Source: Methanocaldococcus sp. FS406-22 (GTDB taxonomy: Archaea > AGJL01 > Methanococci > Methanococcales > Methanocaldococcaceae). Taken from it: a DNA stretch of 64,000 bases. How positions within the stretch are numbered: the stretch's first letter is position 1; the number at the start of each line of letters is the position of its first letter. The notes under the pieces are model-generated. The model was not told where the DNA came from, made no database searches, and saw only the letters and a list, made by a program, of their open reading frames with translations. Both the position numbers and the translations under genes were made by a program. Shown in pieces: positions 5,589 to 33,103 of this stretch. The stretch is from positions 258,729 to 322,728 of the forward strand of contig NC_013887.1 in the NCBI RefSeq assembly GCF_000025525.1, read 5' to 3'.

Positions 5589-6689
5589 TTATTCCAAAAC
5601 AGCCCTCTCTAACTCCTCTGGTCTATGCAATTCTCCTCCAATCTTATCAACTAAGATTATCTCATCAGCTTTTTTGCAAACCCTCTCAACCTCATAATAA
5701 ATCTGTCCTAAGTTCATCTCTGGAACTATGACTTTCTTTGCCTTTAATTTTTTTAACAATTCATCTGGGAATGGATAAACTGTTATCAACCTTATGTATC
5801 CAACATCTAAGCCTTTTTCCATCAAATTTCTAACTGCATGCTTCACAGTCCTTGAAGGAGAACCATAGCAGATAAACATTATCTCAGCATCTATATTTTC
5901 TCCTTCCCATTTAATTATCTCGTCTTTATTCTTTCTAATTTTATTTACTATTCTTCTAACCAACTTATCATGTGTCTCTGGAGAGACATCTGGGTAACCT
6001 CTCTCATCATGAGTTAATCCAGTTATATGCACATTATAACCCTCACCAAACACTGGCATCTCTGGAATTAGCTTATCAAAAGGATATGGCTTTTTGCATG
6101 GTTTTTCATCTGGTTTTTTTCTATCAATTATCTCAATGTTGTCATGCAAAACAACCTTCTCCCTCATGTGTCCAACTATCTCATCAGCCATTACAAACAC
6201 TGGAATTCTATATTTTTCAGCATAGTTGAATGCCATTATTGTGAAGTCATACATCTCTTGAACAGAGCTTGGAGATAAGGCTATAACCTCATAATCCCCA
6301 TGGCTTCCCCATCTACACTGCATCATGTCTCCTTGGGAAGCCATGGTTGGTTGCCCTGTTGAAGGCCCCCCTCTTTGAATATCTACAATAACGCATGGTG
6401 TCTCTGTCATATAAGCAAAGCCGATATTCTCTTGCATTAAACTAAAACCCGGCCCTGAAGTAGCCGTCATTGCCTTTAAACCTCCCCAGCTTGCTCCAAT
6501 AACTGCTGCTATACTCCCAATCTCATCTTCCATCTGTATATAGTAACCTCCAACCTTTGGCAGCTCTCTTGACATTGCCTCAGCTATCTCTGTAGAAGGA
6601 GTTATAGGATAGCCAGCAAAAAATCTACAACCAGCCTTTATAGCCCCTTTAGCACATGCCTGATTTCCTTGCATAAATTCTACTTTCAT
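5589..6689 (-). CDS. korA: 2-oxoglutarate:ferredoxin oxidoreductase subunit KorA
   Basis: Alpha subunit of the enzyme that makes 2-oxoglutarate by reductive carboxylation of succinyl-CoA with reduced ferredoxin, the end of the incomplete reductive TCA branch in methanogens. The 366-residue protein shows the family N-terminus (GNQACAKGAIKAGCRFFAGY, residues 8-27), the PSTGQPT loop, and the C-terminal transketolase-like domain. It corresponds to MJ0276. The beta and gamma genes lie about 31 kb away (37.3-38.7 kb); the ferredoxin-like delta subunit is not in the window. Pyruvate and 2-oxoisovalerate oxidoreductases are relatives, but the match is to Kor. Start ATG follows GGGAGGG. Confidence 0.9.
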   Translation of the reverse strand: MKVEFMQGNQACAKGAIKAGCRFFAGYPITPSTEIAEAMSRELPKVGGYYIQMEDEIGSIAAVIGASWGGLKAMTATSGPGFSLMQENIGFAYMTETPCVIVDIQRGGPSTGQPTMASQGDMMQCRWGSHGDYEVIALSPSSVQEMYDFTIMAFNYAEKYRIPVFVMADEIVGHMREKVVLHDNIEIIDRKKPDEKPCKKPYPFDKLIPEMPVFGEGYNVHITGLTHDERGYPDVSPETHDKLVRRIVNKIRKNKDEIIKWEGENIDAEIMFICYGSPSRTVKHAVRNLMEKGLDVGYIRLITVYPFPDELLKKLKAKKVIVPEMNLGQIYYEVERVCKKADEIILVDKIGGELHRPEELERAVLE

Positions 6690-21728: not shown

Positions 21729-22016
21729 TTACCACCTCAATAGAAGATAAAGCAGTAAAGCTATAATTAGCCCAACAATAAACTCAACTCTTCCATATCC
21801 TGGCCTCATTCCTAAAGGAAATCCAATTAATAAGCAGCCAAGCATATAGAGTGGGGAGTTAATTAAAACCCCACCAATTATCGATAAAGTTAAGGCAATC
21901 TTGTCAATCTTCCTTTCTACATAAGGGGAAGAGTATTTTCTATAGCTATATTCCAACCCAATAAAGTTTCCAATAATAAACAATATTATAGCCAAATTTA
22001 GCTCAAATAATCCCAT
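21729..22016 (-). CDS. ehaL: Eha hydrogenase membrane subunit EhaL
   Basis: A 95-residue membrane protein with three predicted helices (residues about 3-20, 38-62 and 75-93), separated by a short Arg/Lys-rich cytoplasmic loop. Its position, size and topology match EhaL of methanogen Eha operons. It is presumably part of the ion-translocating membrane arm. The start ATG at 22016 follows GGTGAAATC. Confidence 0.8.
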
Positions 22017-22027
22017 GATTTCACCAT

Positions 22028-22273
22028 TTACACAGGAATGTAGAGTTTATATAATGTGTATGCAAAGAAAGCTAAAACTAAGAGCATAAATAGAACCTCA
22101 ATATCTTCCATTTTATGGGCTATTTTTTTGTTTATGATTGAGATTGCCGTTATTAGGATTAAGCCAAATACTAAAACTATTGGGATAACATTAACCTGTA
22201 GTAAACTAACCAATATACAGTAAATCACCGCTATAATGCATGCAATTGTAAAGAAATAAACATAACCTTTCAT
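22028..22273 (-). CDS. ehaK: Eha hydrogenase membrane subunit EhaK
   Basis: An 81-residue protein with three hydrophobic helices and little else, assigned to EhaK by order and size. The ATG at 22273 is set by GAGGGATAAA; the reading frame overlaps the end of ehaJ slightly upstream. It belongs to the membrane arm of the hydrogenase; no specific role is established. Confidence 0.8.
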
Positions 22274-22281
22274 TTTATCCC

Positions 22282-23154
22282 TCACATTAATAATCTGTAT
22301 AGAACATCACACAATACGAGCCCAGCAATTGTCATTTGAAGCATAACTGAGTGGTGAGGAGCTAATAATGGTGTTAATCCATTTACAAATGCTAAAATCA
22401 CTGTCATCACAACCATTACAGCCAGTGTTAATATAGGGCTGTTTATTACGAAAGGGCCGATAAATATGGCTATAAACAGCCAGAGTAATACAAAGTATGC
22501 TATTGCCTCAGCAATGTAGATTATTGATGCCAATAAACCATAATGCTCTGTCATGTATCCACTAACTATATCTTTACCCTTAACTATTCCAAATGGACTG
22601 TTTGGAGCTTTTGAAACAAGCAATATGAAGAATGCAAACGCACAGATTGGCATTTTAAACAGCAAACTTCCATTTATTTCCTGATAGTTCAATATGTCTG
22701 AAATTAGAACTGAGTGTGTTGTTAAATAGATGGCAGCAACAACTGCAAATAAAGGAACTTCTGCAGCTGCTGAGAAGACACTCCTAACCCCTCCTATCTT
22801 TCCATAAGGAGAACCAGATGACAAACCACAACCATGCTCCACTATTTTTTGCAATACATAGATTCCTATGATTATGAGGAGAGATGATTTGAAATCAATG
22901 GCTATAATTAATGCAGCTAACCAAATAGCAACATCCAACAAAGCCACAAATATATAAAGAGGATTTCCAGCAGTTATTGGAAAAGTTATCTCCTTTACAT
23001 AGAATTTTAAGGTATGTAATAGATACTGAATTATTGGAGGGCCTGGTCTTCCTTGAATTCTTGCCATTATCTTTCTATGCAATCCAAGTAATAAAGAGCC
23101 AACAAGAAATGCATGGATTGTTAGGTTTATAACTCCGATTAGTGAAGTGTCCAT
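22282..23154 (-). CDS. ehaJ: Eha hydrogenase membrane subunit EhaJ (NuoH-like)
   Basis: The 290-residue NuoH/HyfC-like subunit that joins the hydrogenase module to the ion-translocating membrane part. It has about eight helices and the family's cytoplasmic loop RKIMARIQGRPGPPIIQY (residues 27-44), equivalent to the quinone-site loop of complex I, plus the conserved Glu-containing AAAEVPLFA and YMTEHYG segments. Start ATG at 23154 follows GGGTGAGGAT. A second, identical copy of its first codons lies 130 bp upstream inside a palindromic element. Confidence 0.9.
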   Translation of the reverse strand: MDTSLIGVINLTIHAFLVGSLLLGLHRKIMARIQGRPGPPIIQYLLHTLKFYVKEITFPITAGNPLYIFVALLDVAIWLAALIIAIDFKSSLLIIIGIYVLQKIVEHGCGLSSGSPYGKIGGVRSVFSAAAEVPLFAVVAAIYLTTHSVLISDILNYQEINGSLLFKMPICAFAFFILLVSKAPNSPFGIVKGKDIVSGYMTEHYGLLASIIYIAEAIAYFVLLWLFIAIFIGPFVINSPILTLAVMVVMTVILAFVNGLTPLLAPHHSVMLQMTIAGLVLCDVLYRLLM

Positions 23155-23285
23155 ATCCTCACCCAGATTTTATTTCTTGTTTAATTTACACCTCCGAGTG
23201 TAAGCGAGGAGGTGTTAGTTTTGATGAAACTTTCTTAAAGTTTCATTGATAGCGTTTTATAACTCCGATTAGTGAAGTGTCCATA
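23126..23285. repeat. Palindromic element with duplicated gene start (ehaJ)
   Basis: Thirty identical bases occur at 23126-23155 (real start of ehaJ) and 23256-23285. The upstream copy has its own ribosome binding site (AAGGTGATGCTT) and encodes MDTSLIGVI before a stop after 13 codons. The 100 bp between the copies contain a hairpin with stem ACACCTCC / GGAGGTGT (23188-23215, loop GAGTGTAAGCGA), the connector TAGTTTTGAT, and a second hairpin GAAACTTT-CTT-AAAGTTTC (23226-23244). The element at 58.2 kb is the same sequence on the opposite strand. Confidence 0.85.
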
Positions 23286-23302
23286 AGCATCACCTTAATG
23301 TC

Positions 23303-23503
23303 TTAATATCCTCTAAACGGCAATTTTCCAGCATCTTTTCTTCTTGTTTTTGGAATTACAAATGCTCCAATTCCATACAGCAAAGAAGGAACTGCAATAA
23401 CATACAGTATATAGCAAATTAATCCATTAAGCATAATTATCCCAACAACACACAATAGGCCTATAATTAGCAAATACAATCCATACTTTCTCTCTTCATC
23501 CAT
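23303..23503 (-). CDS. ehaI: Eha hydrogenase small membrane subunit EhaI
   Basis: A 66-residue protein with two membrane helices and a basic C-terminal tail (RRKDAGKLPFRGY). Its order and size fit EhaI. The ATG at 23503, behind AAGGTGAAGATA, is preferred over an upstream in-frame codon at 23512. It is separated from ehaJ by 148 bp, an unusually large gap for this otherwise tightly packed operon, because of the inserted palindromic element. Confidence 0.75.
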   Translation of the reverse strand: MDEERKYGLYLLIIGLLCVVGIIMLNGLICYILYVIAVPSLLYGIGAFVIPKTRRKDAGKLPFRGY

Positions 23504-23513
23504 TATCTTCACC

Positions 23514-24170
23514 TTAAATTGTCAATAAAATTTCAACAGTCCTTACGATCAACAACAGTGAGGAGAGGTGTATCATCAATATATACGGTGACCCAGGAGC
23601 TCTAAACATCTCCGCCTTTGCAGCATAGAAAGGTGCTATTCCAGTCTCTCCAGCCATTCCAGCGGCAAATATGATTTTTTCAAATAATAATGAGGCCTGA
23701 GTTTTTGGTAGTTCAAATATTGATAATGTCCCTGTTTTAGCTAATATCATCCCTGCAGACCCAAACAATGGGAGAGTGGCAATCATCGCTATAAGCCCAT
23801 ACTGATATGCAGCATTTAACACCCATTCCCTCTTAACCGCTGAAACAATCCCTATATTTGCAATTCCAACTAAAGTTAAGAACAAAGCATAATCAAACAA
23901 ATCATAGGTAAGCATTGCACCAGCAGTAGCTATCCCACAAACAATAGCCATCATTCTTCTAATTTTTAATTCTTTTAGAGTAACAAGTTCCAATTTATCT
24001 TCAACTTTAAATTTTTGAGCCTCTAACTGCTTTTCTGGCTTTGTTAAATAAACTATGATTGTAAATATTACTGCAGTGATAAACCCAATAATAGAAAATT
24101 CTGAAAAGCTAAATACAATGTCTCCAAATGGAACTTTCCCAAATAAGAATCCAGATATTGTTTCAATCAT
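23514..24170 (-). CDS. ehaH: Eha hydrogenase membrane subunit EhaH
   Basis: A 218-residue membrane protein with about six helices, with a charged cytoplasmic loop near residues 46-72. Order and length match EhaH, a subunit with distant likeness to antiporter-type NuoL/M/N proteins, expected to take part in cation translocation. The start ATG at 24170 overlaps the stop of ehaG by 4 bp and follows GGTGAGGTAAG. Confidence 0.82.
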
Positions 24171-24862
24171 CTTACCTCACCTATATATCCAATAAGTCCT
24201 AATTTAGAGCCAACTTTTATAACTAAACCTAAACCAGCCATCAATAAACACAATAACCACTTGTCTGGAAATATAAAGAAACCTAAAAATCCAAACACCC
24301 ACAAAGCCCATGCAACTCCTGACAACCCAGATATTCCTTCCCACATTGCCTTTAGCTCTTCTGAAATCTCCGCACCAATAACTCTCTGAGATAATGCATA
24401 AAACAACAATCCAGTTGCTATAACCGCCCCTCCTGTAAATCCACTTAATATGGCTCCATAAACAATTAAAACTACTGCTAAAAACTTAGGTGAGGTTTTT
24501 AAAATTTCCATCTCAATGTTATACTTTAATTCTCCTGTATGCAGTGGGAGTTTAAACTCCTCAAACAACTTATAACTCCTTGGCTTGGGTCTTTTTGATT
24601 TTAAATACTTCCTTGTTATTAAAACCTCTGAAACTGCTAAAAGCTCTGCTAAGCTAACAACTAAACCTGGTAAAATTAACGCCTCAGCCAAATCTGTTCC
24701 AACACCTGCTATAATTATGAGCATAGCACACTCAATAACATCAGTTAATATTAGAGCATGTAAATCATTCTTTTGAAATCCAATAGCCAATAACGACAAA
24801 ATTCCAACAGCAAATCCAACCAATATCGTTGGATGATAGAGGGAATAAACAAAGCTATCCAT
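24167..24862 (-). CDS. ehaG: Eha hydrogenase membrane subunit EhaG
   Basis: A 231-residue membrane protein with about six to seven helices and a basic cytoplasmic loop ([20 protein letters not shown], about residues 84-103). Position and length match EhaG. It belongs to the membrane arm of the hydrogenase. The start follows AGGTGAGAAG and its end overlaps ehaH by 4 bp, indicating coupled translation. Confidence 0.82.
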
Positions 24863-24870
24863 CTTCTCAC

Positions 24871-25332
24871 CTAATCCTTGTTAAAGAACATCCAGCTAAA
24901 TATCATAAACGATATTAGTAGTATAGAGCTTTCAAGGACTGTATCCATTCCTCTTGTATAATAAAGGATTTCATCTAATATCCCTCCAGGCGTTGAAACA
25001 ATTGTTGTTCCAAAGTAATAGGTTTTATCTTTAATCCATTCAGCTATTGGTGTTAGATAGGCAGTTATCTTTCCAAGATTTGGTGCATATTGAGGATATT
25101 GAGCTTTTAATTCTGCCGGTTCTTTTAATGGAATTCCTCCCCTATCATAAGGTGCTAATGGTGTTTTTAACGTTTGAGAATGAGGAATTGGCTTTGGATA
25201 CAGTTGATTGGGATTTAAATAATGAGGAGTCAATACTCCAAATATAAAGACTAAGGCTAAGAATACAGAGAATATTCTTGGAACAATTTCTGGCTTTGAT
25301 AGGTAGTTCCATATTTTCCCCAATTGTTTCAT
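24871..25332 (-). CDS. ehaF: Eha hydrogenase subunit EhaF
   Basis: A 153-residue protein with a helix near residues 15-37, a long extracytoplasmic-like loop rich in Pro and Tyr ([15 protein letters not shown] and after), and a second helix at the C-terminus. This two-helix topology, the length and the operon position match EhaF. The ATG at 25332, behind GAGGGGGAAA, is preferred over an in-frame codon at 25344. Confidence 0.8.
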
Positions 25333-25344
25333 TTTCCCCCTCAA

Positions 25345-25605
25345 CTAATCATTTTCTTTATATTCAGCATCTAATATCACTGCTCTAACTAAAATTAAAC
25401 TTAAAACTGCATTAACAGCAATAAATGTCATCAGTGCAAGAGCTTCATCATAAGTTAAAAATACCAATGCTACGCCTACTGCAGGAACTTCTACATTTAA
25501 CATCCTAATTAGAGGATTATCAACCTTCGGTCCTACAACAGTCCCAAGAGCCCCAATAATCAATAATGCATAGCCAATATAGAGGATATACTCAACGAAC
25601 TCCAT
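25345..25605 (-). CDS. ehaE: Eha hydrogenase membrane subunit EhaE
   Basis: An 86-residue membrane protein with two to three helices and the acidic end EYKEND. Order and size match EhaE. Similar small subunits in Ehb and Mbh complexes resemble MrpG/MrpF-type antiporter subunits; that likeness cannot be confirmed by eye here. Start ATG follows GGTGAATATCT. Confidence 0.8.
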   Translation of the reverse strand: MEFVEYILYIGYALLIIGALGTVVGPKVDNPLIRMLNVEVPAVGVALVFLTYDEALALMTFIAVNAVLSLILVRAVILDAEYKEND

Positions 25606-25625
25606 AGATATTCACCACATATTCT

Positions 25626-25904
25626 TTATTTGGACAATATTGGTAGATTTCTGCCGTATCTTTTCTTCTTCTTTACTGTTGTTAGATATTTTAAATATCC
25701 AAGCAATAAGATTATTGTGCAGATTGGCTCGCAGAGTGATGAAACTATAGCTATATCTAAATAGTAACAAGAAACAATCAACCCAATCATTCCAATTTCT
25801 AATACTGAAAGCATAATAATTTTGTTTATTGGGTTTGTATGTAATATAACTCCAATTCCTCCCAATATACAGCATATTCCTGATATTAATGGTAAAATAT
25901 CCAT
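25626..25904 (-). CDS. ehaD: Eha hydrogenase membrane subunit EhaD
   Basis: A 92-residue membrane protein with three helices and a basic C-terminus (KKKKRYGRNL). The pattern of small hydrophobic helices resembles NuoK/MrpC-type subunits: GGIGVILHTNPINKIIMLSVLEIG. Order and size match EhaD. The start follows GAGGAGGGTTATTT. Confidence 0.8.
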   Translation of the reverse strand: MDILPLISGICCILGGIGVILHTNPINKIIMLSVLEIGMIGLIVSCYYLDIAIVSSLCEPICTIILLLGYLKYLTTVKKKKRYGRNLPILSK

Positions 25905-25922
25905 AAATAACCCTCCTCTTAA

Positions 25923-26168
25923 TTACTCAAGGTGTTTTGTCTGCTCTATTGTGTAGGCAATTGCATTGGATGATAAAGTTGAGCATATAAAGTATGTTAT
26001 AGCCGCTATTCCTCCCATCGGTGAATCTACATATAAAGCGATTAATGCAGAGATGCAGAAGCTTAAACAGCAAAGATACAGCAATTTTCTTGCTCTACTT
26101 CTTTCTAGGAATATTCTTGCTGTCATCAACAATGCTATAAGTCCAATAATTATCTCCACTGTATCCAT
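25923..26168 (-). CDS. ehaC: Eha hydrogenase membrane subunit EhaC
   Basis: An 81-residue protein with three membrane helices, assigned to EhaC by order and size. The ATG at 26168 lies 4 nt behind GAGGGGA; the ATG at 26171 is also in frame. It overlaps the end of ehaB, consistent with coupled translation in the operon. Confidence 0.78.
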   Translation of the reverse strand: MDTVEIIIGLIALLMTARIFLERSRARKLLYLCCLSFCISALIALYVDSPMGGIAAITYFICSTLSSNAIAYTIEQTKHLE

Positions 26169-26662
26169 CATTCCCCTCTATTCATCTTTTTAGCTATTTT
26201 TCCAAGCAATTTTGAAGCCCATTTATGTTCAAGCCCTTGAATTGTGAATATTGCCAAAACCATCCCACCAATAAAATATTTCGCCTCAATTATTGGATTT
26301 AGGATATAGATTATAGCAGTTATAGTTAAAGCTCCAATAGTTCCAGCATATCCAGGGTCTGCACATAAACGATTTCCTATCCAAACCAATAAAGCTGCTA
26401 TAAACCCTCCTTCAATCCCCATTAGGTAGTTCATAATTGAAGCTAAGAGTGTTCCTGCCGAAGCGTCTGGAGAGCACACAATATTTCCCATAAAGTATCC
26501 TCCATTTAAATTTCCACCAATATCTCTAATCTTCTCTCCTATTGTCTTAGCTCCCAAAACACCTGGCTTTTCTGGAAGTCCAAAGTAGGTATCAATAAGG
26601 ACGAAGTTAAGCCAGCATATAATTCCAGCAGTGATAATTTTTACAATCTCAGCAATCTCCAT
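26168..26662 (-). CDS. ehaB: Eha hydrogenase membrane subunit EhaB
   Basis: A 164-residue membrane protein with about four helices and a conserved-looking cytoplasmic loop around residues 33-62 ([19 protein letters not shown]). It matches EhaB by order and length. The start overlaps the stop of ehaA by 1 bp and follows GGTGAGCCGTA. Confidence 0.82.
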
Positions 26663-26925
26663 TACGGCTCACCAAATAACTTATCAGCATATTTTGATAA
26701 TAAAGCCCCAAACAGCCCAGCAAAGAAAGCTAAGCTTATATAGTCTCCAAATAAGTTTCTAAATATTGCTTCAATACCCAAAGCTAAGATTGGTGTTGGA
26801 AATATAACCGATGTCTCAAAGCTAAACCTTATAGGCTTTTCTCTTGGAAGTATTGGAAGTTTTAAGATTAATGCAACAATTATTGATGTTACTAAAGCTA
26901 CTATATACAGTATAGCAATATTCAT
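26662..26925 (-). CDS. ehaA: Eha hydrogenase membrane subunit EhaA
   Basis: An 87-residue membrane protein with two to three helices; first structural gene of the hydrogenase operon. The ATG at 26925 sits 4 nt behind GGTGAA, and an adjacent in-frame ATG is at 26928. It begins right after the stop of the HTH gene, so the regulator and hydrogenase genes appear to be one transcript. Confidence 0.82.
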
Positions 26926-26929
26926 CATT

Positions 26930-28348: not shown

Positions 28349-28406
28349 TGGCTCAGTTCGGGTAAGTATCATCACAAATCAGCTAACCCTCTTTTCATCA
28401 TTGCCA
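28349..28406 (-). ncRNA. Box C/D guide sRNA
   Basis: On the minus strand the order is: stem TGGC (28403-28406), box C ATGATGA (28395-28401), guide AAAGAGGGTTAG, box D' CTGA (28379-28382), box C' GTGATGA (28369-28375), guide TACTTACCCGAA, box D CTGA (28353-28356), closing GCCA (28349-28352). All boxes are consensus and both guides are 12 nt. By the D+5 rule the predicted methylated bases are the G in TTCGG|GTAAGTA (D guide) and the C in CTAAC|CCTCTTT (D' guide). Targets not assigned. It lies 8 bp downstream of ZPR1, antisense to it. Confidence 0.9.
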
Positions 28407-28535
28407 TTTTATATATTATGCCTTAATTGTTTTATCTTTTTTTATGGTAGTATTTATACTTTAAATAATGTTATTTTTAAATATTTAGATAAACACTTAG
28501 TTATGAATAAATTCTAAAATTTTCATAATTTTTAA

Positions 28536-28585
28536 CACCGAAAAGTAGATATACCAGTAAATGTAATTTTACAAATTGTAAAATT
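28536..28585 (+). promoter_or_regulatory. Promoter and operator-like palindrome of the peptide operon
   Basis: CCGAAAAGTAGATATA (28538-28553) reads as BRE plus TATA box. It is followed by a perfect 21-bp palindrome, AATTTTACAA-A-TTGTAAAATT (28565-28585), which covers the predicted transcription start and ends 5 bp before the first ribosome binding site. This is the expected place for a repressor site; as RNA it could instead form a 7-bp hairpin. Confidence 0.55.
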
Positions 28586-28603
28586 TCTTGGAGGTGAGGC
28601 AAT

Positions 28604-28768
28604 ATGTGCACCCCAATATCAGTAACTGCAATGGGGGCTTTACCAACCCTCAGCATGATGGTCCCATATGTTTTAGGGGCTGTTGCATTAATGTTAGCAG
28701 CAGCATGGAGCTTCGTAAGTGCAAAAGTTGAAAGCATTGCTAAAACTACAGCTACAGTAACTGAATAA
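28604..28768 (+). CDS. Short Cys2 membrane peptide 1 (candidate modified peptide)
   Basis: A 54-residue peptide missing from ordinary length cut-offs. It starts MCTPISVTAMGALPTL, continues into one strongly hydrophobic stretch (residues about 18-40, MMVPYVLGAVALMLAAAW), and ends in a Ser/Thr/Lys tail (AKTTATVTE). The ribosome binding site GGAGGTGA is among the strongest in the window. The N-terminus MC-x-P-[IV]-S-x-T is shared with the next peptide. I recognise no family. Its pairing with a radical SAM gene suggests a precursor that is post-translationally modified, perhaps at Cys2 or the Ser/Thr residues; a small subunit of a membrane complex is the alternative. Confidence 0.75.
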   Translation: MCTPISVTAMGALPTLSMMVPYVLGAVALMLAAAWSFVSAKVESIAKTTATVTE

Positions 28769-28824
28769 ATTTAATTTCCCTCTGTTCTTTAAAGTTCTTA
28801 TGACCTTTTTAGGAGGTGAGAACT

Positions 28825-28977
28825 ATGTGTGCTCCAGTATCTGCAACTACAAGTGTTGGGGCATCATTAATATCCCAGGCATTAATGATTGGAGAAGTTA
28901 TAGGATTTGCAGGAATTATTGGAGTTTTACTCTTTGTCTTTAAAGATACAATTAATGCAGTAATAAGCAGGTCATAA
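28825..28977 (+). CDS. Short Cys2 membrane peptide 2 (candidate modified peptide)
   Basis: A 50-residue peptide, MCAPVSATTSVGASLISQ at the start, with a hydrophobic helix at about residues 19-39 rich in Gly (IGEVIGFAGIIGVLLFVF), then KDTINAVISRS. It shares the MC-x-P-[IV]-S-x-T motif with peptide 1 but otherwise differs, as in two-component peptide systems. It is 56 bp downstream of peptide 1 and has AGGAGGTGAG before its ATG. A T-rich run follows at 29003-29022 before the radical SAM gene, so the peptides may be made in excess over the enzymes. Function unknown. Confidence 0.75.
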   Translation: MCAPVSATTSVGASLISQALMIGEVIGFAGIIGVLLFVFKDTINAVISRS

Positions 28978-29043
28978 TATAAAAACCTTAGGTTACTTCT
29001 CTTATATTTTTTTATAATTTTTACAATGTTAAGGGGAATAACC

Positions 29044-29889
29044 ATGCTGTCTATATTATCTTCAATGATAAAACCTAAAATTCTGCAGGTAGAAACAACT
29101 AACGATTGTAATAGTAATTGTAAGATATGTATGAGGAGATTTTGGAAAAGAGGCGTAGGTTATATGAGCTATGACGACTTTACCAAATTGCCAATTCAAG
29201 AATTTGATGAAGTTGCCTTACATGGATGGGGGGAGTGTTTTTTACATCCTGATTTGTTTAAAATGGTCAAATATGTCAAACAACACAATGTCAAAGCAAG
29301 TTTATGTACAAATGGGAAATTATTAGGAGAGAGGTTGGAAGAAGTATTGAGTAGTGGATTGGATGAGATAGCATTTGGGATATACACTCTAGATGGAAAA
29401 GATGACATTATAAACAACATACAAGCGTTGATTGAAGAGAGAAATAACCGGAATATTAATTTGGCAATATTTTTTGATATAACCGTATTCAAAGAAAATT
29501 TAAATGAAATAAAAGATATTGTAGAAAAAGCTATTGAACTAGGTGTTGATGGTGTTGTCTTCCACAGACTATTTGACATATACAACGTTGATGAAGGAGT
29601 CAAATACGATTTGACTCCTAAAGAAGAAAAAGAGTTTTTTAGCTTAATAAAAAATAAATATTCTAAGCAAATTCCTTTGTATTTCCCTCTAAAACATACA
29701 ACACCTTGTAGGGTTTTGTTAAAATGTATGTTTGTAAGATATGATGGATTACAGTCTCCATGTGTATATCTAAGTGATGATGTGCTTGGAGATGCAAGAA
29801 ATGCATCATACAAAGAAATGCTAAAAAGGCATATATATTTTATAAAAGGGGTGAAAAAAAATGCCATCTGCAGAAAATGTATATGGTAA
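29044..29889 (+). CDS. Radical SAM enzyme with SPASM-like C-terminus, peptide-locus maturase candidate
   Basis: A 281-residue radical SAM protein. The [4Fe-4S]-SAM motif is canonical (TTNDCNSNCKICMRRFW, CxxxCxxC, about residues 16-32), and GWGECFLHPD follows as the GGEP-like SAM-binding segment. The C-terminal 80 residues carry a SPASM/twitch-like Cys set: TPCRVLLKC, then DGLQSPCVYL and the terminal ICRKCIW. Such domains are typical of enzymes that modify ribosomal peptides, or of AdoMet maturases. ATG at 29044, behind AAGGGGAAT, is preferred to 29026. The end overlaps the next gene by 29 bp. Substrate inferred, not shown: the two Cys2 peptides just upstream. Confidence 0.8.
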   Translation: MLSILSSMIKPKILQVETTNDCNSNCKICMRRFWKRGVGYMSYDDFTKLPIQEFDEVALHGWGECFLHPDLFKMVKYVKQHNVKASLCTNGKLLGERLEEVLSSGLDEIAFGIYTLDGKDDIINNIQALIEERNNRNINLAIFFDITVFKENLNEIKDIVEKAIELGVDGVVFHRLFDIYNVDEGVKYDLTPKEEKEFFSLIKNKYSKQIPLYFPLKHTTPCRVLLKCMFVRYDGLQSPCVYLSDDVLGDARNASYKEMLKRHIYFIKGVKKNAICRKCIW

Positions 29890-30451
29890 GTTATACAATG
29901 ACCTAACAAAATTTGCAATAGTTTATTTTTTAGCTTTAATAGGCTACTTTAGTAGTTTATTCTCAGTCGAAAGTTTATGGTATAATTTATTTCACATAAG
30001 AGCTCCTTTCTTAGGTATGGTTTTGTTTGGAGGATTTTATTATATCATTTGGATAGTAATCGCAAAAGAGGTATGTGGGAAGTATTATGGTGTCATGGTT
30101 GCTACACTAATAGCATGTTTTGCTTTACTGGCAAGTCCATGGTTTGGAGTATCAAATCCACCATGGTTTGGAGTAGTAGGGTTAATATCATTTATCATAA
30201 TGGGGTATTTAACGGAAAGATTTAATGGGGCAGTAGGTCTACCAGCGGCAGTAATAATAAACTGGACAGTATTTTGGGCTTTTAATCCAGATGTATTTGC
30301 TGCAAGATATAGCATTTCTGCGTTAGTTATTACATTTATTTTATCAATAATCTCTGGATTTATAGGGGACTATATTGGAAAATATCTTGGAAAAGTTTTA
30401 AAAAACTATATTAACTTTAAAAACATCCCTTCATCTAATTTAGACCAATAA
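29861..30451 (+). CDS. Six-helix membrane protein of the peptide locus
   Basis: A 196-residue membrane protein with about six helices (residues 17-35, 48-66, 73-90, 97-115, 125-143, 150-170) and a basic tail. The short loop between helices and lack of a P-loop recall S-components of ECF transporters, but I see no decisive motif. It begins inside the end of the radical SAM gene, with GGGGTGA before the ATG, so the two are translationally coupled. It may export, anchor or receive the peptides; this is inference from the gene order. It also could be a subunit of a membrane complex formed with them. Confidence 0.7.
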   Translation: MPSAENVYGKLYNDLTKFAIVYFLALIGYFSSLFSVESLWYNLFHIRAPFLGMVLFGGFYYIIWIVIAKEVCGKYYGVMVATLIACFALLASPWFGVSNPPWFGVVGLISFIIMGYLTERFNGAVGLPAAVIINWTVFWAFNPDVFAARYSISALVITFILSIISGFIGDYIGKYLGKVLKNYINFKNIPSSNLDQ

Positions 30452-30463
30452 TTGGGTGATAAA

Positions 30464-31924
30464 ATGAATAAAACAACTAAGATAATACTAGGTATATTAT
30501 GTATAATAGGTGCTGTAGGGTTAGTAGTGTATGGTTACCAAACATACAAGGCAGAATATTTAGCAGCAAAATATACTAATGAAGGAATTCCAATATTGAG
30601 AGAAGCAATAGCTGATGGAAATATGTCTGCTTACAAATTGGCAGATCATTATTTCGACTTGGCTATAAAAGCAGATCCTTACTACCCATGGGCATGGTAT
30701 AACAAAGCAAATGTTTATGCGAATACAGACCACTTTTATCATTATGACAAATATCCAAATGAAACTTATATTCAAGCGGGATTAGCAGACGAACAAAAAA
30801 ACTATGATATGGCGATGAAATGCGTCCATAGATTTATGGAACTAGATCCAAAAGATGCACCATTAGGCTATCAATTAATAGGAGCTGCAAACTACCTCTA
30901 CTATGATACTTATAATGATAAAGTAAAGTATGTTTTACCTCCAGATTTTGAGGCATTAAAAGGAATTGATGAGATATATAAAGTTTCTGGAAAAGGAGGA
31001 ACTGCATCATTATTAGCAAACATTGCTAGAACATACTTATCAATGGGAGAATTTAACGACTCCTATAAATATTATGTATACTCACAAATTACAGACCCTA
31101 AAGAAAATCCAATGGCAAAGTATGCAATTCCTGAAGGTCCAGCATTTGAGCACTTAGTATGGTCAGCGATAATTCTTGCAGAGTTGCACGATCCAAAAGT
31201 TAATTATGCATTAGCAAACAAATACTGCCACATGTTCGTTGATAATTACGGACCTAAATTAGGGTGGACTATGGATTTAGGTTACATGCCTACAGCAGTT
31301 TCAGCATATCAATTAGGAAAATATGATGAAGTTCTAAAATGTTGTAATTTAATCATAAATAAATACTCAAATCCAAAATCAGATGACTTAGATGATTACT
31401 CACCATACTACGGAGAGGCTAACAGATACATTGCAATGGTTGATATGAAAAAAGGAGATTTAGAAGATGCTATAAAACACTTAAAAGAAAATATTAGATT
31501 TTCTTCAATGATGGTTCCTCCTGCCGATGACTATCCAGCTGACATTCCAGTAGGGTATTATGAACGAGGATTAGCATACTACTTCCTAGGCAAATACACT
31601 GGAAACAAATCATACTACGAACTGGCTTTAAAAGACTTTAAATATTTAGTAGATAATCCAAATGTTTCAAATAGAAGTATAGCTCACGAAAACTATTATT
31701 TCCTTGGAACAGTTATGACTGGCTGCACATATGCTAAATTAGGAGATTATAACAATGCTCAAAAATACCTAAAAATGGCATTAGATGAACTATCTACAAA
31801 TGAACAACTAATAGGATACAACAAATACTTTAGAAAAGATACTGAAATGTTATACAATGAAATGAAAAACAAAGATTTCAAAGGAATAGATGCATTCCCA
31901 TGGCTGTGGGAAATTGAACACTAA
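30464..31924 (+). CDS. Membrane-anchored TPR-repeat protein of the peptide locus
   Basis: A 486-residue protein with one N-terminal membrane helix (residues 5-25, TTKIILGILCIIGAVGLVVY) and a long body of tetratricopeptide-like repeats. Clear TPR pairs include HYFDLAIKADPYYPWAWYNKANVY, the YKYYVYSQ block, the LGKYDEVLKCCNLIIN block and the LGDYNNAQKYLKMALDEL block. The body probably lies outside the membrane, since several N-x-S/T sequons occur. TPR domains hold partners together, so it could scaffold the peptides and membrane protein. The ATG at 30464 follows GGGTGATAAA. A T-rich terminator-like stretch follows. Confidence 0.75.
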   Translation: MNKTTKIILGILCIIGAVGLVVYGYQTYKAEYLAAKYTNEGIPILREAIADGNMSAYKLADHYFDLAIKADPYYPWAWYNKANVYANTDHFYHYDKYPNETYIQAGLADEQKNYDMAMKCVHRFMELDPKDAPLGYQLIGAANYLYYDTYNDKVKYVLPPDFEALKGIDEIYKVSGKGGTASLLANIARTYLSMGEFNDSYKYYVYSQITDPKENPMAKYAIPEGPAFEHLVWSAIILAELHDPKVNYALANKYCHMFVDNYGPKLGWTMDLGYMPTAVSAYQLGKYDEVLKCCNLIINKYSNPKSDDLDDYSPYYGEANRYIAMVDMKKGDLEDAIKHLKENIRFSSMMVPPADDYPADIPVGYYERGLAYYFLGKYTGNKSYYELALKDFKYLVDNPNVSNRSIAHENYYFLGTVMTGCTYAKLGDYNNAQKYLKMALDELSTNEQLIGYNKYFRKDTEMLYNEMKNKDFKGIDAFPWLWEIEH

Positions 31925-31927
31925 AAA

Positions 31928-31957
31928 AATTTTATTTTTATTTTATTATTTTTTATT
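31928..31957 (+). terminator. T-rich terminator of the peptide locus
   Basis: Four T-runs in 30 bases (TTTTATTTTTATTTTATTA and TTTTTT), immediately after the TPR gene stop codon. Archaeal RNA polymerase stops at such runs. This supports one transcript from 28.6 to 31.9 kb. Confidence 0.55.
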
Positions 31958-32037
31958 CTCTAGTCGTAGTTTTTATCTGCACATAGAAACGATTATTTTG
32001 TAGATAGTGCTTTTTATTTTAACATACAAATATGAAA

Positions 32038-32112
32038 TTTATATAAATGGGAGATTTTAACACTTCTAAAATCTCTTGTGGCTGCGATACCTTAGAATAG
32101 TTACATAACTAT
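32038..32112 (+). promoter_or_regulatory. TATA box with two inverted repeats upstream of the FmdE-like gene
   Basis: TTTATATAAA (32038-32047) is followed by GAGATTTTA ... TAAAATCTC (32051-32075, 9-bp perfect arms) over the expected start site, then ATAGTTA-CA-TAACTAT (32097-32112). A second BRE/TATA (CGAAAATTATAAAG, 32174-32187) lies closer to the gene. The rest of this 300-bp gap shows nothing further. It may be a regulated promoter or encode a small RNA. Confidence 0.45.
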
Positions 32113-32227
32113 ACTAAAATAAAATTATATTAAATCGTAGATATTAATTCATAACGATTCATTAATAATATGACGAAAATTATAAAGAGATTCCTAATTT
32201 TTTGTAATATTGACTGAGGTGAATAAA

Positions 32228-32878
32228 ATGAAAAACTTGGAAAAAAATATTGATAATGAACTGGAAGAGCTCGTAAAATTTCATGGACACCTTTGTTTTG
32301 GGTTAGCCTTGGGATACAGAGTTGGAAAAGTTGTAAGACAGTATTTTAGTCGAGCTGAAGATGAGGAATTGGTAGCTATTGTTGAAAATGATTCATGTAG
32401 TATAGATGCAATACAATATATGTTAGGATGTACATTTGGAAAAGGAAATTTAATATATAAAGATTATGGAAAGCACGTATATATTTTTTATTCAAGAATT
32501 CAGAAAAAAGCTATTAAGATTTCAGTTCAAGGAACTCTACTTGAGTATATTGAAAATATGGTTAATACATTTGAGGAATATAAAGAAAAGCTAAAAAAAG
32601 AAAATGACGAGAATGAAACCATAAAAGAAAAACTGAAGGACTTTGCAAAAAAATTGAACAACCAGATAATTGAGAAAGTATTAACATCTTCTGATGATGA
32701 ATTATTTAACATAAGTTGGATTGATATTAAACCTCCAAAAAGAGCTAAGATTTATCGTTTAGTAAAATGTGAAGTGTGTGGAGAATATTTTATAGAAACA
32801 AAAGGAAGATTAATAAACAAAAAAATTGTATGCAAAGAATGCTTTGAAAAATTACTAAATCAAGAGGATGAAGATTAA
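32228..32878 (+). CDS. FmdE-like protein with C-terminal zinc ribbon
   Basis: A 216-residue FmdE-family protein. The family core HGHLCFGLALGYRVGKVV near residue 20 and DSCSIDAIQYMLGCTFGKGN near residue 55 carry the conserved His and Cys ligands, and a four-Cys zinc ribbon (CEVCGEYF ... CKECF) ends the protein. FmdE is named for its place in the molybdenum formylmethanofuran dehydrogenase operon; a role in metal or sulfur handling is suggested, but its reaction is not established. The middle is a long charged coiled-coil-like segment. The ATG at 32228 follows GAGGTGAATAAA. In M. jannaschii I do not recall it at this place. Confidence 0.8.
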   Translation: MKNLEKNIDNELEELVKFHGHLCFGLALGYRVGKVVRQYFSRAEDEELVAIVENDSCSIDAIQYMLGCTFGKGNLIYKDYGKHVYIFYSRIQKKAIKISVQGTLLEYIENMVNTFEEYKEKLKKENDENETIKEKLKDFAKKLNNQIIEKVLTSSDDELFNISWIDIKPPKRAKIYRLVKCEVCGEYFIETKGRLINKKIVCKECFEKLLNQEDED

Positions 32879-33103
32879 AATTACCCAATACGCATATATA
32901 AAAGGAGAATTGTTAGCAAAACTTTATGGGTTAATCTAAGAATTTATATGAATTTATATAAAAATACTAATATTTGGAAATCACTAAATCTTGCAAATTA
33001 AACATAAGGTTAAGTATCCCCTATTTTCCTAAAGGTTTTTATTCTATGATGTGCCAAATATTATTATTAAAAATTTATGAACAAAATTATGTACGGTGAA
33101 AAC

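What the first reader, a model, noticed from the sequence alone, without database searches (positions are those of the whole stretch)
28604..31924. Undescribed locus: two Cys2 hydrophobic peptides, radical SAM enzyme, membrane protein and TPR protein
Two small genes (54 and 50 codons) with very strong ribosome binding sites begin MC-x-P-[IV]-S-x-T and then turn into a single hydrophobic helix. A radical SAM protein with CxxxCxxC and a SPASM-like Cys set follows, overlapping a six-helix protein, then a membrane-anchored TPR protein. From established knowledge, radical SAM/SPASM enzymes beside tiny genes often modify ribosomal peptides. By inference this is a peptide-maturation system, perhaps a two-peptide membrane toxin or signal, or a membrane complex with modified small subunits. 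From memory, ZPR1 and UspA are adjacent in M. jannaschii, so the block is accessory.
Basis: partly seen in the sequence, partly recalled or inferred. Interest (0 to 1): 0.9.

Follow-up and report, generated by a model that had tools for sequence, protein, structure and literature searches.

The report
Archaeal radical-SAM two-micropeptide membrane cassette
A mobile block of five genes in some hot-vent methane-making archaea encodes two tiny membrane peptides that share a distinctive start, an enzyme that probably chemically modifies that start, a transporter-like membrane protein and an outside-facing scaffold protein; no described system has this combination, but nothing has yet been tested at the bench.

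Summary
Five adjacent co-directional genes (pepA 28604-28768, pepB 28825-28977, rSAM 29044-29889, six-TM protein MP 29861-30451, anchored TPR protein 30464-31924) recur together in exactly 6 of 36 genomes of the order. A DNA pattern for the M-C-x-P-[IV]-x-x-T start hits exactly twice in each of those six genomes and never in the other 30. All genes are under purifying selection. The block sits inside a 4.6-kb insertion between ZPR1 and UspA, which are neighbours in most relatives, and has moved between families. MP matches no sequence family; its model resembles ECF-transporter S components (suggestive: best Foldseek E 0.004, TM-score 0.49). The rSAM enzyme has the CxxxCxxC cluster and a five-cysteine half-SPASM domain, no RRE, and belongs to no named family. 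There is no protease or exporter. Best reading: the rSAM enzyme modifies the uncharged Cys2...Thr8 segment of two single-helix peptides, which then work in the membrane with the S-component-like protein and the external TPR protein, as receptor or uptake subunits rather than a secreted toxin. Conservation and linkage are shown; modification chemistry, partners and function are inferred.

The parts
28540..28555 (+). BRE/TATA-like archaeal promoter element of pepA
   Evidence: AAAACTTTATATAT-type box at the same place upstream of pepA in the orthologous loci, degenerate here (GAAAAGTAGATATACC)
28567..28583 (.). Palindrome TTTTACAAATTGTAAAA between promoter and SD, possible operator
   Evidence: kept in G013/G007, only half-sites in the other clade
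28590..28597 (+). Perfect Shine-Dalgarno GGAGGTGA of pepA
28604..28768 (+). pepA: 54-aa single-helix peptide, MCTPISVTAMG...
28812..28819 (+). Perfect Shine-Dalgarno GGAGGTGA of pepB
28825..28977 (+). pepB: 50-aa single-helix peptide, MCAPVSATTSVG...
28978..29025 (+). T-rich spacer after pepB, present in all loci; possible partial terminator that keeps enzyme below peptide level (inference)
29044..29889 (+). Radical SAM enzyme, 281 aa: CxxxCxxC plus five-Cys half-SPASM, no RRE
29861..30451 (+). MP: 196-aa six-TM protein, ECF S-component-like predicted fold, overlaps rSAM by 29 nt
30464..31924 (+). TPR protein, 486 aa, N-terminal membrane anchor, repeats predicted outside
28417..33030 (.). Inserted segment carrying the cassette and an FmdE-family gene, absent between ZPR1 and UspA of relatives
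32222..32878 (+). FmdE-family protein with C-terminal zinc ribbon, inside the same insertion; associated, not a core member

Best explanation
A mobile accessory membrane system. The radical SAM/half-SPASM enzyme modifies the N-terminal, uncharged MC-x-P-[IV]-x-x-T segment of two co-expressed single-helix peptides, most simply by radical chemistry involving Cys2, for instance a thioether to a residue in the Pro4-Thr8 stretch. The peptides need no leader removal or exporter: they insert N-out/C-in and present the modified N-terminus at the outer face. There they assemble with the S-component-like six-TM protein and the externally exposed, membrane-anchored TPR protein to form a small ligand-binding complex (uptake, possibly through a shared EcfT/EcfA motor elsewhere in the genome, or sensing). 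Shown: conservation, obligate linkage, purifying selection, operon layout, mobility, fold resemblance. Inferred: substrate identity, chemistry, topology, complex formation, ligand.
For: Same five genes together in 6/36 genomes and none of the four gene types, at orthologue level, outside that set apart from one lone TPR paralogue inside it (peptide pattern 12/12 next to the rSAM). Invariant peptide residues are M1, C2, P4, T8 and one helix Gly, so three of the four non-start invariants lie in the first eight positions. dN/dS against G013: pepA 0.18, pepB 0.07, rSAM 0.06, MP 0.07, TPR 0.04. Perfect SDs for the peptides only, plus a conserved promoter before pepA, fit substrate or subunit in excess of enzyme. 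rSAM model hits include PqqE, SkfB, SuiB and EpeE peptide-modifying enzymes. MP model: all top five PDB matches are ECF S components, probability 0.92-1.00, next hit 0.30. EcfT/CbiQ homologues exist in every genome. N-terminal 20 residues uncharged, charges C-terminal in all peptides. No protease or ABC exporter in the neighbourhoods read.
Against: No direct evidence that the peptides are modified. The rSAM model also matches non-peptide enzymes (BlsE, DesII, MoaA, NifB) and its C-terminal part is low confidence. The MP match is not significant by E-value (3.9e-3) and TM-score is 0.49 on a five-sequence alignment. The AXXXA motif that couples S components to EcfT (PMC11109136) is not present as such; invariant G28xxxS32 is only similar. 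Topology rests on charge distribution alone.
Confidence: 0.42

Rival explanations
1. Two-peptide archaeocin or signal: both peptides are modified, released or inserted in neighbours' membranes, and MP and/or the TPR protein give immunity.
For: Two unequal hydrophobic peptides always in pairs; patchy, horizontally moved cassette; peptides are the fastest-evolving members (identity to G013 0.69/0.80 versus 0.85-0.92).
Against: No exporter, leader or protease; N-terminal motif and both helices stay recognisable across families; a 486-aa highly conserved external TPR protein is not a usual immunity protein.
Confidence: 0.2
2. The peptides are unmodified micro-subunits of an S-component-type importer, and the rSAM enzyme acts on the imported small molecule or a metal cofactor (tetrapyrrole or Mo/W-pterin).
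For: MP fold; best rSAM profile is the tungsten-oxidoreductase maturase model, with NirJ-type heme enzymes among the next. All six cassette genomes have an FmdE homologue, inside the insertion here and adjacent in G010; in the family 4/4 cassette versus 2/10 other genomes, Fisher p 0.015, uncorrected. FmdE lies next to a cbiG-like gene in G013 and a uroporphyrinogen-methyltransferase-like gene in G023 (by inspection). The G023 TPR paralogue sits beside molybdate-type ABC genes (by inspection).
Against: The tungsten model rings in all 36 genomes and 14/14 controls, none over cut-off, so it is uninformative. FmdE is common without the cassette (17 of 30 genomes). It does not explain why Cys2/Pro4/Thr8 are invariant.
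Confidence: 0.25
3. The rSAM enzyme modifies MP or the TPR protein; the peptides are assembly factors.
For: rSAM and MP genes overlap by a constant 29 nt; MP has an invariant K-E-x-C-G-x-Y-Y-G loop.
Against: The peptides share a motif that looks like a recognised or processed site; MP has no unusual Cys cluster.
Confidence: 0.07

Closest known systems
Radical SAM/SPASM peptide maturation (sactipeptide, ranthipeptide, PqqA/PqqE-type RiPP systems)
   Same: SPASM-type rSAM gene beside tiny Cys-containing genes in an excess-expression layout; the model matches PqqE, SkfB and SuiB
   Different: No RRE, leader/core split, protease or exporter; conserved residues are at the extreme N-terminus of a membrane helix; five of seven SPASM cysteines; no named rSAM family reached
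ECF transporter S component (YkoE, RibU, PanT, ThiT) and relatives of that fold (MreD, 5TMR sensors)
   Same: Six TM helices, about 190 aa, top five structural matches
   Different: No sequence-family match, no EcfA/EcfT in the cassette, no strict AXXXA; comes with two micropeptides and an rSAM
CbiMN/NikMN metal importers (from memory, a lead only)
   Same: S-type protein with a small membrane subunit and metal-ligand residues near an N-terminus
   Different: Here the conserved N-terminal residue is Cys on separate peptides, with an rSAM and a TPR protein
TIGR04317 tungsten-oxidoreductase rSAM maturase
   Same: Best NCBIfam score, 115 bits
   Different: Cut-off 380 not met; no oxidoreductase seen nearby; the model rings on every genome tried

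Membership tests
RiPP rSAM system (sacti/ranthipeptide type) | rSAM gene adjacent to precursor gene(s), co-inherited | tested here: met
   12/12 peptides next to rSAM in 6 genomes, none elsewhere
RiPP rSAM system (sacti/ranthipeptide type) | RRE/PqqD-like recognition domain in or beside the enzyme | tested here: not met
   No PqqD match; only 15 residues precede the rSAM core
RiPP rSAM system (sacti/ranthipeptide type) | Leader protease and/or exporter | tested here: not met
   None in the neighbourhoods read of five loci
RiPP rSAM system (sacti/ranthipeptide type) | Peptide carries the modification | not testable with these tools
   Needs mass spectrometry
SPASM domain (PF13186, 7-Cys) | Seven cysteines, score above cut-off | tested here: not met
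   Five of seven Cys; 20.4 bits versus 21.5
Radical SAM superfamily (PF04055) | CxxxCxxC and score above cut-off | tested here: met
   40.1 bits versus 29.5
TIGR04317 W_rSAM_matur | Score at least 380 bits | tested here: not met
   115 bits
ECF transporter S component | S-component fold | tested here: inconclusive
   Top five hits, probability up to 1.00, but E 3.9e-3, TM 0.49, shallow alignment
ECF transporter S component | AXXXA motif in helix 1 | tested here: not met
   Invariant G28xxxS32 instead
ECF transporter S component | EcfT/EcfA available | tested here: inconclusive
   CbiQ/EcfT in all 36 genomes, none in the cassette; EcfA not searched
Prokaryotic viperin (pVip) | Full-length viperin match | tested here: not met
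   Only the rSAM core, residues 18-116, 44 bits
Two-peptide bacteriocin/archaeocin | Killing activity and immunity protein | not testable with these tools
   Needs assay

The most novel reading that the evidence does not exclude
An S-component-fold receptor or importer whose outer binding site is completed by two dedicated micro-subunits carrying a radical-SAM-made modification at an N-terminal cysteine: a ribosomal peptide product that is a permanent membrane-protein subunit rather than a secreted natural product.
Probability: 0.22. Interest if true: 0.85.

Novelty: new variant of a known kind. Interest (0 to 1): 0.62.

Why it matters
It would extend radical SAM peptide maturation to membrane-resident micro-subunits without leaders, in hyperthermophilic methanogens, where few such systems are known. 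If the host is Methanocaldococcus sp. FS406-22, as replicon sizes suggest, it is directly testable there: markerless deletion and complementation exist for that strain (PMC8809328). It also offers a natural presence/absence series: closely related genomes with and without the cassette.

Tried and rejected
MP, TPR and rSAM alignments against viral contigs: no relatives. TPR and MP against plasmids: none. SD + MCAP[IV] pattern in viral contigs: four hits, all charged or too short to be such peptides, i.e. chance. Tungsten-maturase reading from the NCBIfam top hit: model rings on every control genome. Viperin/defence reading: core-only match. The two best-scoring non-orthologous rSAM neighbourhoods in other genomes look like sugar/surface-glycan loci, not beside such peptides. 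Binning artefact for G010: rejected, its flanking gene is 97-99% identical to other Methanocaldococcus. tRNA-targeted integration: no tRNA in the window. FmdE as a core member: it is separate from the cassette in four of six genomes and common without it. Peptides and MP against Pfam/NCBIfam/PHROGs: no credible match.

Full report
THE OBSERVATION. The five genes are present as described, all on the + strand. pepA and pepB encode 54- and 50-aa peptides, each with one hydrophobic stretch. Their ribosome-binding site GGAGGTGA occurs nowhere else on either strand of the 64-kb window. The 281-aa radical SAM protein carries CxxxCxxC and passes the Pfam cut-off. The six-TM protein overlaps it by 29 nt. 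The 486-aa TPR protein has one N-terminal hydrophobic helix.

IT IS NOT CHANCE. Searches of the 36 held genomes of the order (the phylum search returned the same 36) found MP in six: the window's own G000, G007, G010, G013 (same genus) and G023, G029 (other family). A profile of the rSAM finds orthologues in the same six and only generic rSAM paralogues elsewhere; the TPR orthologue is in the same six, plus one lone paralogue in G023. A DNA pattern for M-C-x-P-[IV]-x-x-T hits exactly twice in each of the six and zero times in the other 30; the reversed control gives zero. A looser SD + MCxP pattern gives the same 12 hits. Ten peptides align with invariant M1, C2, P4, T8 and one Gly in the helix. 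Pairwise dN/dS of G000 against G013 is 0.18 (pepA), 0.07 (pepB), 0.06 (rSAM), 0.07 (MP), 0.04 (TPR); more distant pairs are near synonymous saturation and were not relied on.

LAYOUT AND MOBILITY. Gene order is pepA-pepB-rSAM-MP-TPR in G000, G007 and G013, and TPR-pepA-pepB-rSAM-MP in G010, G023 and G029; all genes are co-directional in each locus. An AAAACTTTATATAT-type promoter box lies upstream of pepA in the orthologous loci and is degenerate in G000. A T-rich spacer follows pepB in all. In eight relatives ZPR1 is directly followed by UspA. Against G004 the DNA matches up to 28416 and again from 33031, so the cassette plus an FmdE gene are a 4.6-kb insertion. In G010 the block sits elsewhere, between genes that look like a proteasome subunit and, past an FmdE and a channel-like gene, an SBDS-like protein (by inspection). 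The G010 flanking gene is 97-99% identical to close Methanocaldococcus genomes that lack the cassette and 64% to G023/G029, yet its cassette proteins are nearer to those of G023/G029 (rSAM 82% to G029 against 67% to G000; TPR 74-76% against 57%), and the TPR tree splits the two clades with full support. Horizontal transfer between families is the simplest account.

THE PARTS. rSAM: best NCBIfam score is TIGR04317 at 115 bits against a cut-off of 380, and that model rings in all 36 genomes and all 14 controls without passing, so it says little. Cysteines 222, 228, 240, 276 and 279 give a half-SPASM; the 7-Cys definition is not met. There is no RRE-like domain. The model (mean pLDDT 68, C-terminal part poor) matches BlsE, DesII, PqqE, SkfB, MoaA, NifB and SuiB, peptide and non-peptide enzymes alike. 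MP: no Pfam or NCBIfam match; its model (pLDDT 72, pTM 0.72) has ECF S components as the top five PDB matches with probability 0.92-1.00, the next match 0.30. E-value 3.9e-3 and TM-score 0.49 make this suggestive only. The fold is shared with MreD and 5TMR sensors, and the AXXXA motif marks transporters (PMC11109136); MP has invariant G28xxxS32 instead. EcfT/CbiQ exists in every genome. Peptides: the first 20 residues are uncharged in all ten and charges lie after the helix, which by the positive-inside rule suggests N-out, C-in. TPR: the anchor and the lack of other TM segments suggest external repeats.

HOW IT MOST LIKELY WORKS. The conserved Cys2-Pro4-Thr8 segment with the obligate rSAM points to modification of that segment. 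The absence of exporter, leader and protease, and the constant company of an S-component-like protein and an external TPR protein, point to a resident membrane complex. Each step after co-inheritance is inference. Rivals are a two-peptide archaeocin or signal, and an importer whose rSAM acts on the imported cofactor. For the latter, FmdE is a lead: present in all six cassette genomes, in the insertion here and next to the cassette in G010, enriched within the family (4/4 versus 2/10, p 0.015, post hoc and uncorrected; over all 36 genomes p 0.07), and near tetrapyrrole-type genes in G013 and G023 (by inspection).

KNOWN OR NEW. The literature held reports rSAM-dependent RiPP clusters as a class in archaea (PMC12144867) but the searches made returned no description of this cassette; absence from an open-licence library is weak evidence. 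These names are unverified. Searches outside this order were limited: one pattern-based scan of the species collection found only two further records, corresponding to G007 and G010, and a weak bacterial rSAM, so wider occurrence is not excluded.

Noticed in passing
window 28351-28405 (-): C/D-box guide RNA sR3 (RF01133, 51 bits) between ZPR1 and the insertion edge at 28416; may mark the integration site.
   Followed up: partly
L015 3193-4240 and 10051-11216: In G013 the cassette lies between two CRISPR-type repeat arrays with slightly different repeats; the second holds a 346-bp tandem duplication of repeats and spacers.
   Followed up: partly
L018 6040-6886: The G023 rSAM reading frame is broken by a single-base shift around 6630-6640; sequencing error, slippage or decay not distinguished.
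   Followed up: partly
L125 5388-6761: Lone divergent paralogue of the TPR protein in G023, beside molybdate-type ABC transporter genes (by inspection) and without peptides.
   Followed up: partly
window 32222-32878; L012 7737-8330: FmdE-family gene adjacent to the cassette in two independently placed copies; FmdE lies next to a cbiG-like gene in G013 (L096) and a uroporphyrinogen-methyltransferase-like gene in G023 (L099).
   Followed up: partly
window 28567-28583: Palindrome TTTTACAAATTGTAAAA just upstream of the pepA SD, kept in G013/G007; possible operator.
   Followed up: partly
window 21729-26928 (-): Long run of membrane-subunit genes resembling an energy-converting hydrogenase cluster, by inspection only.
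   Followed up: no
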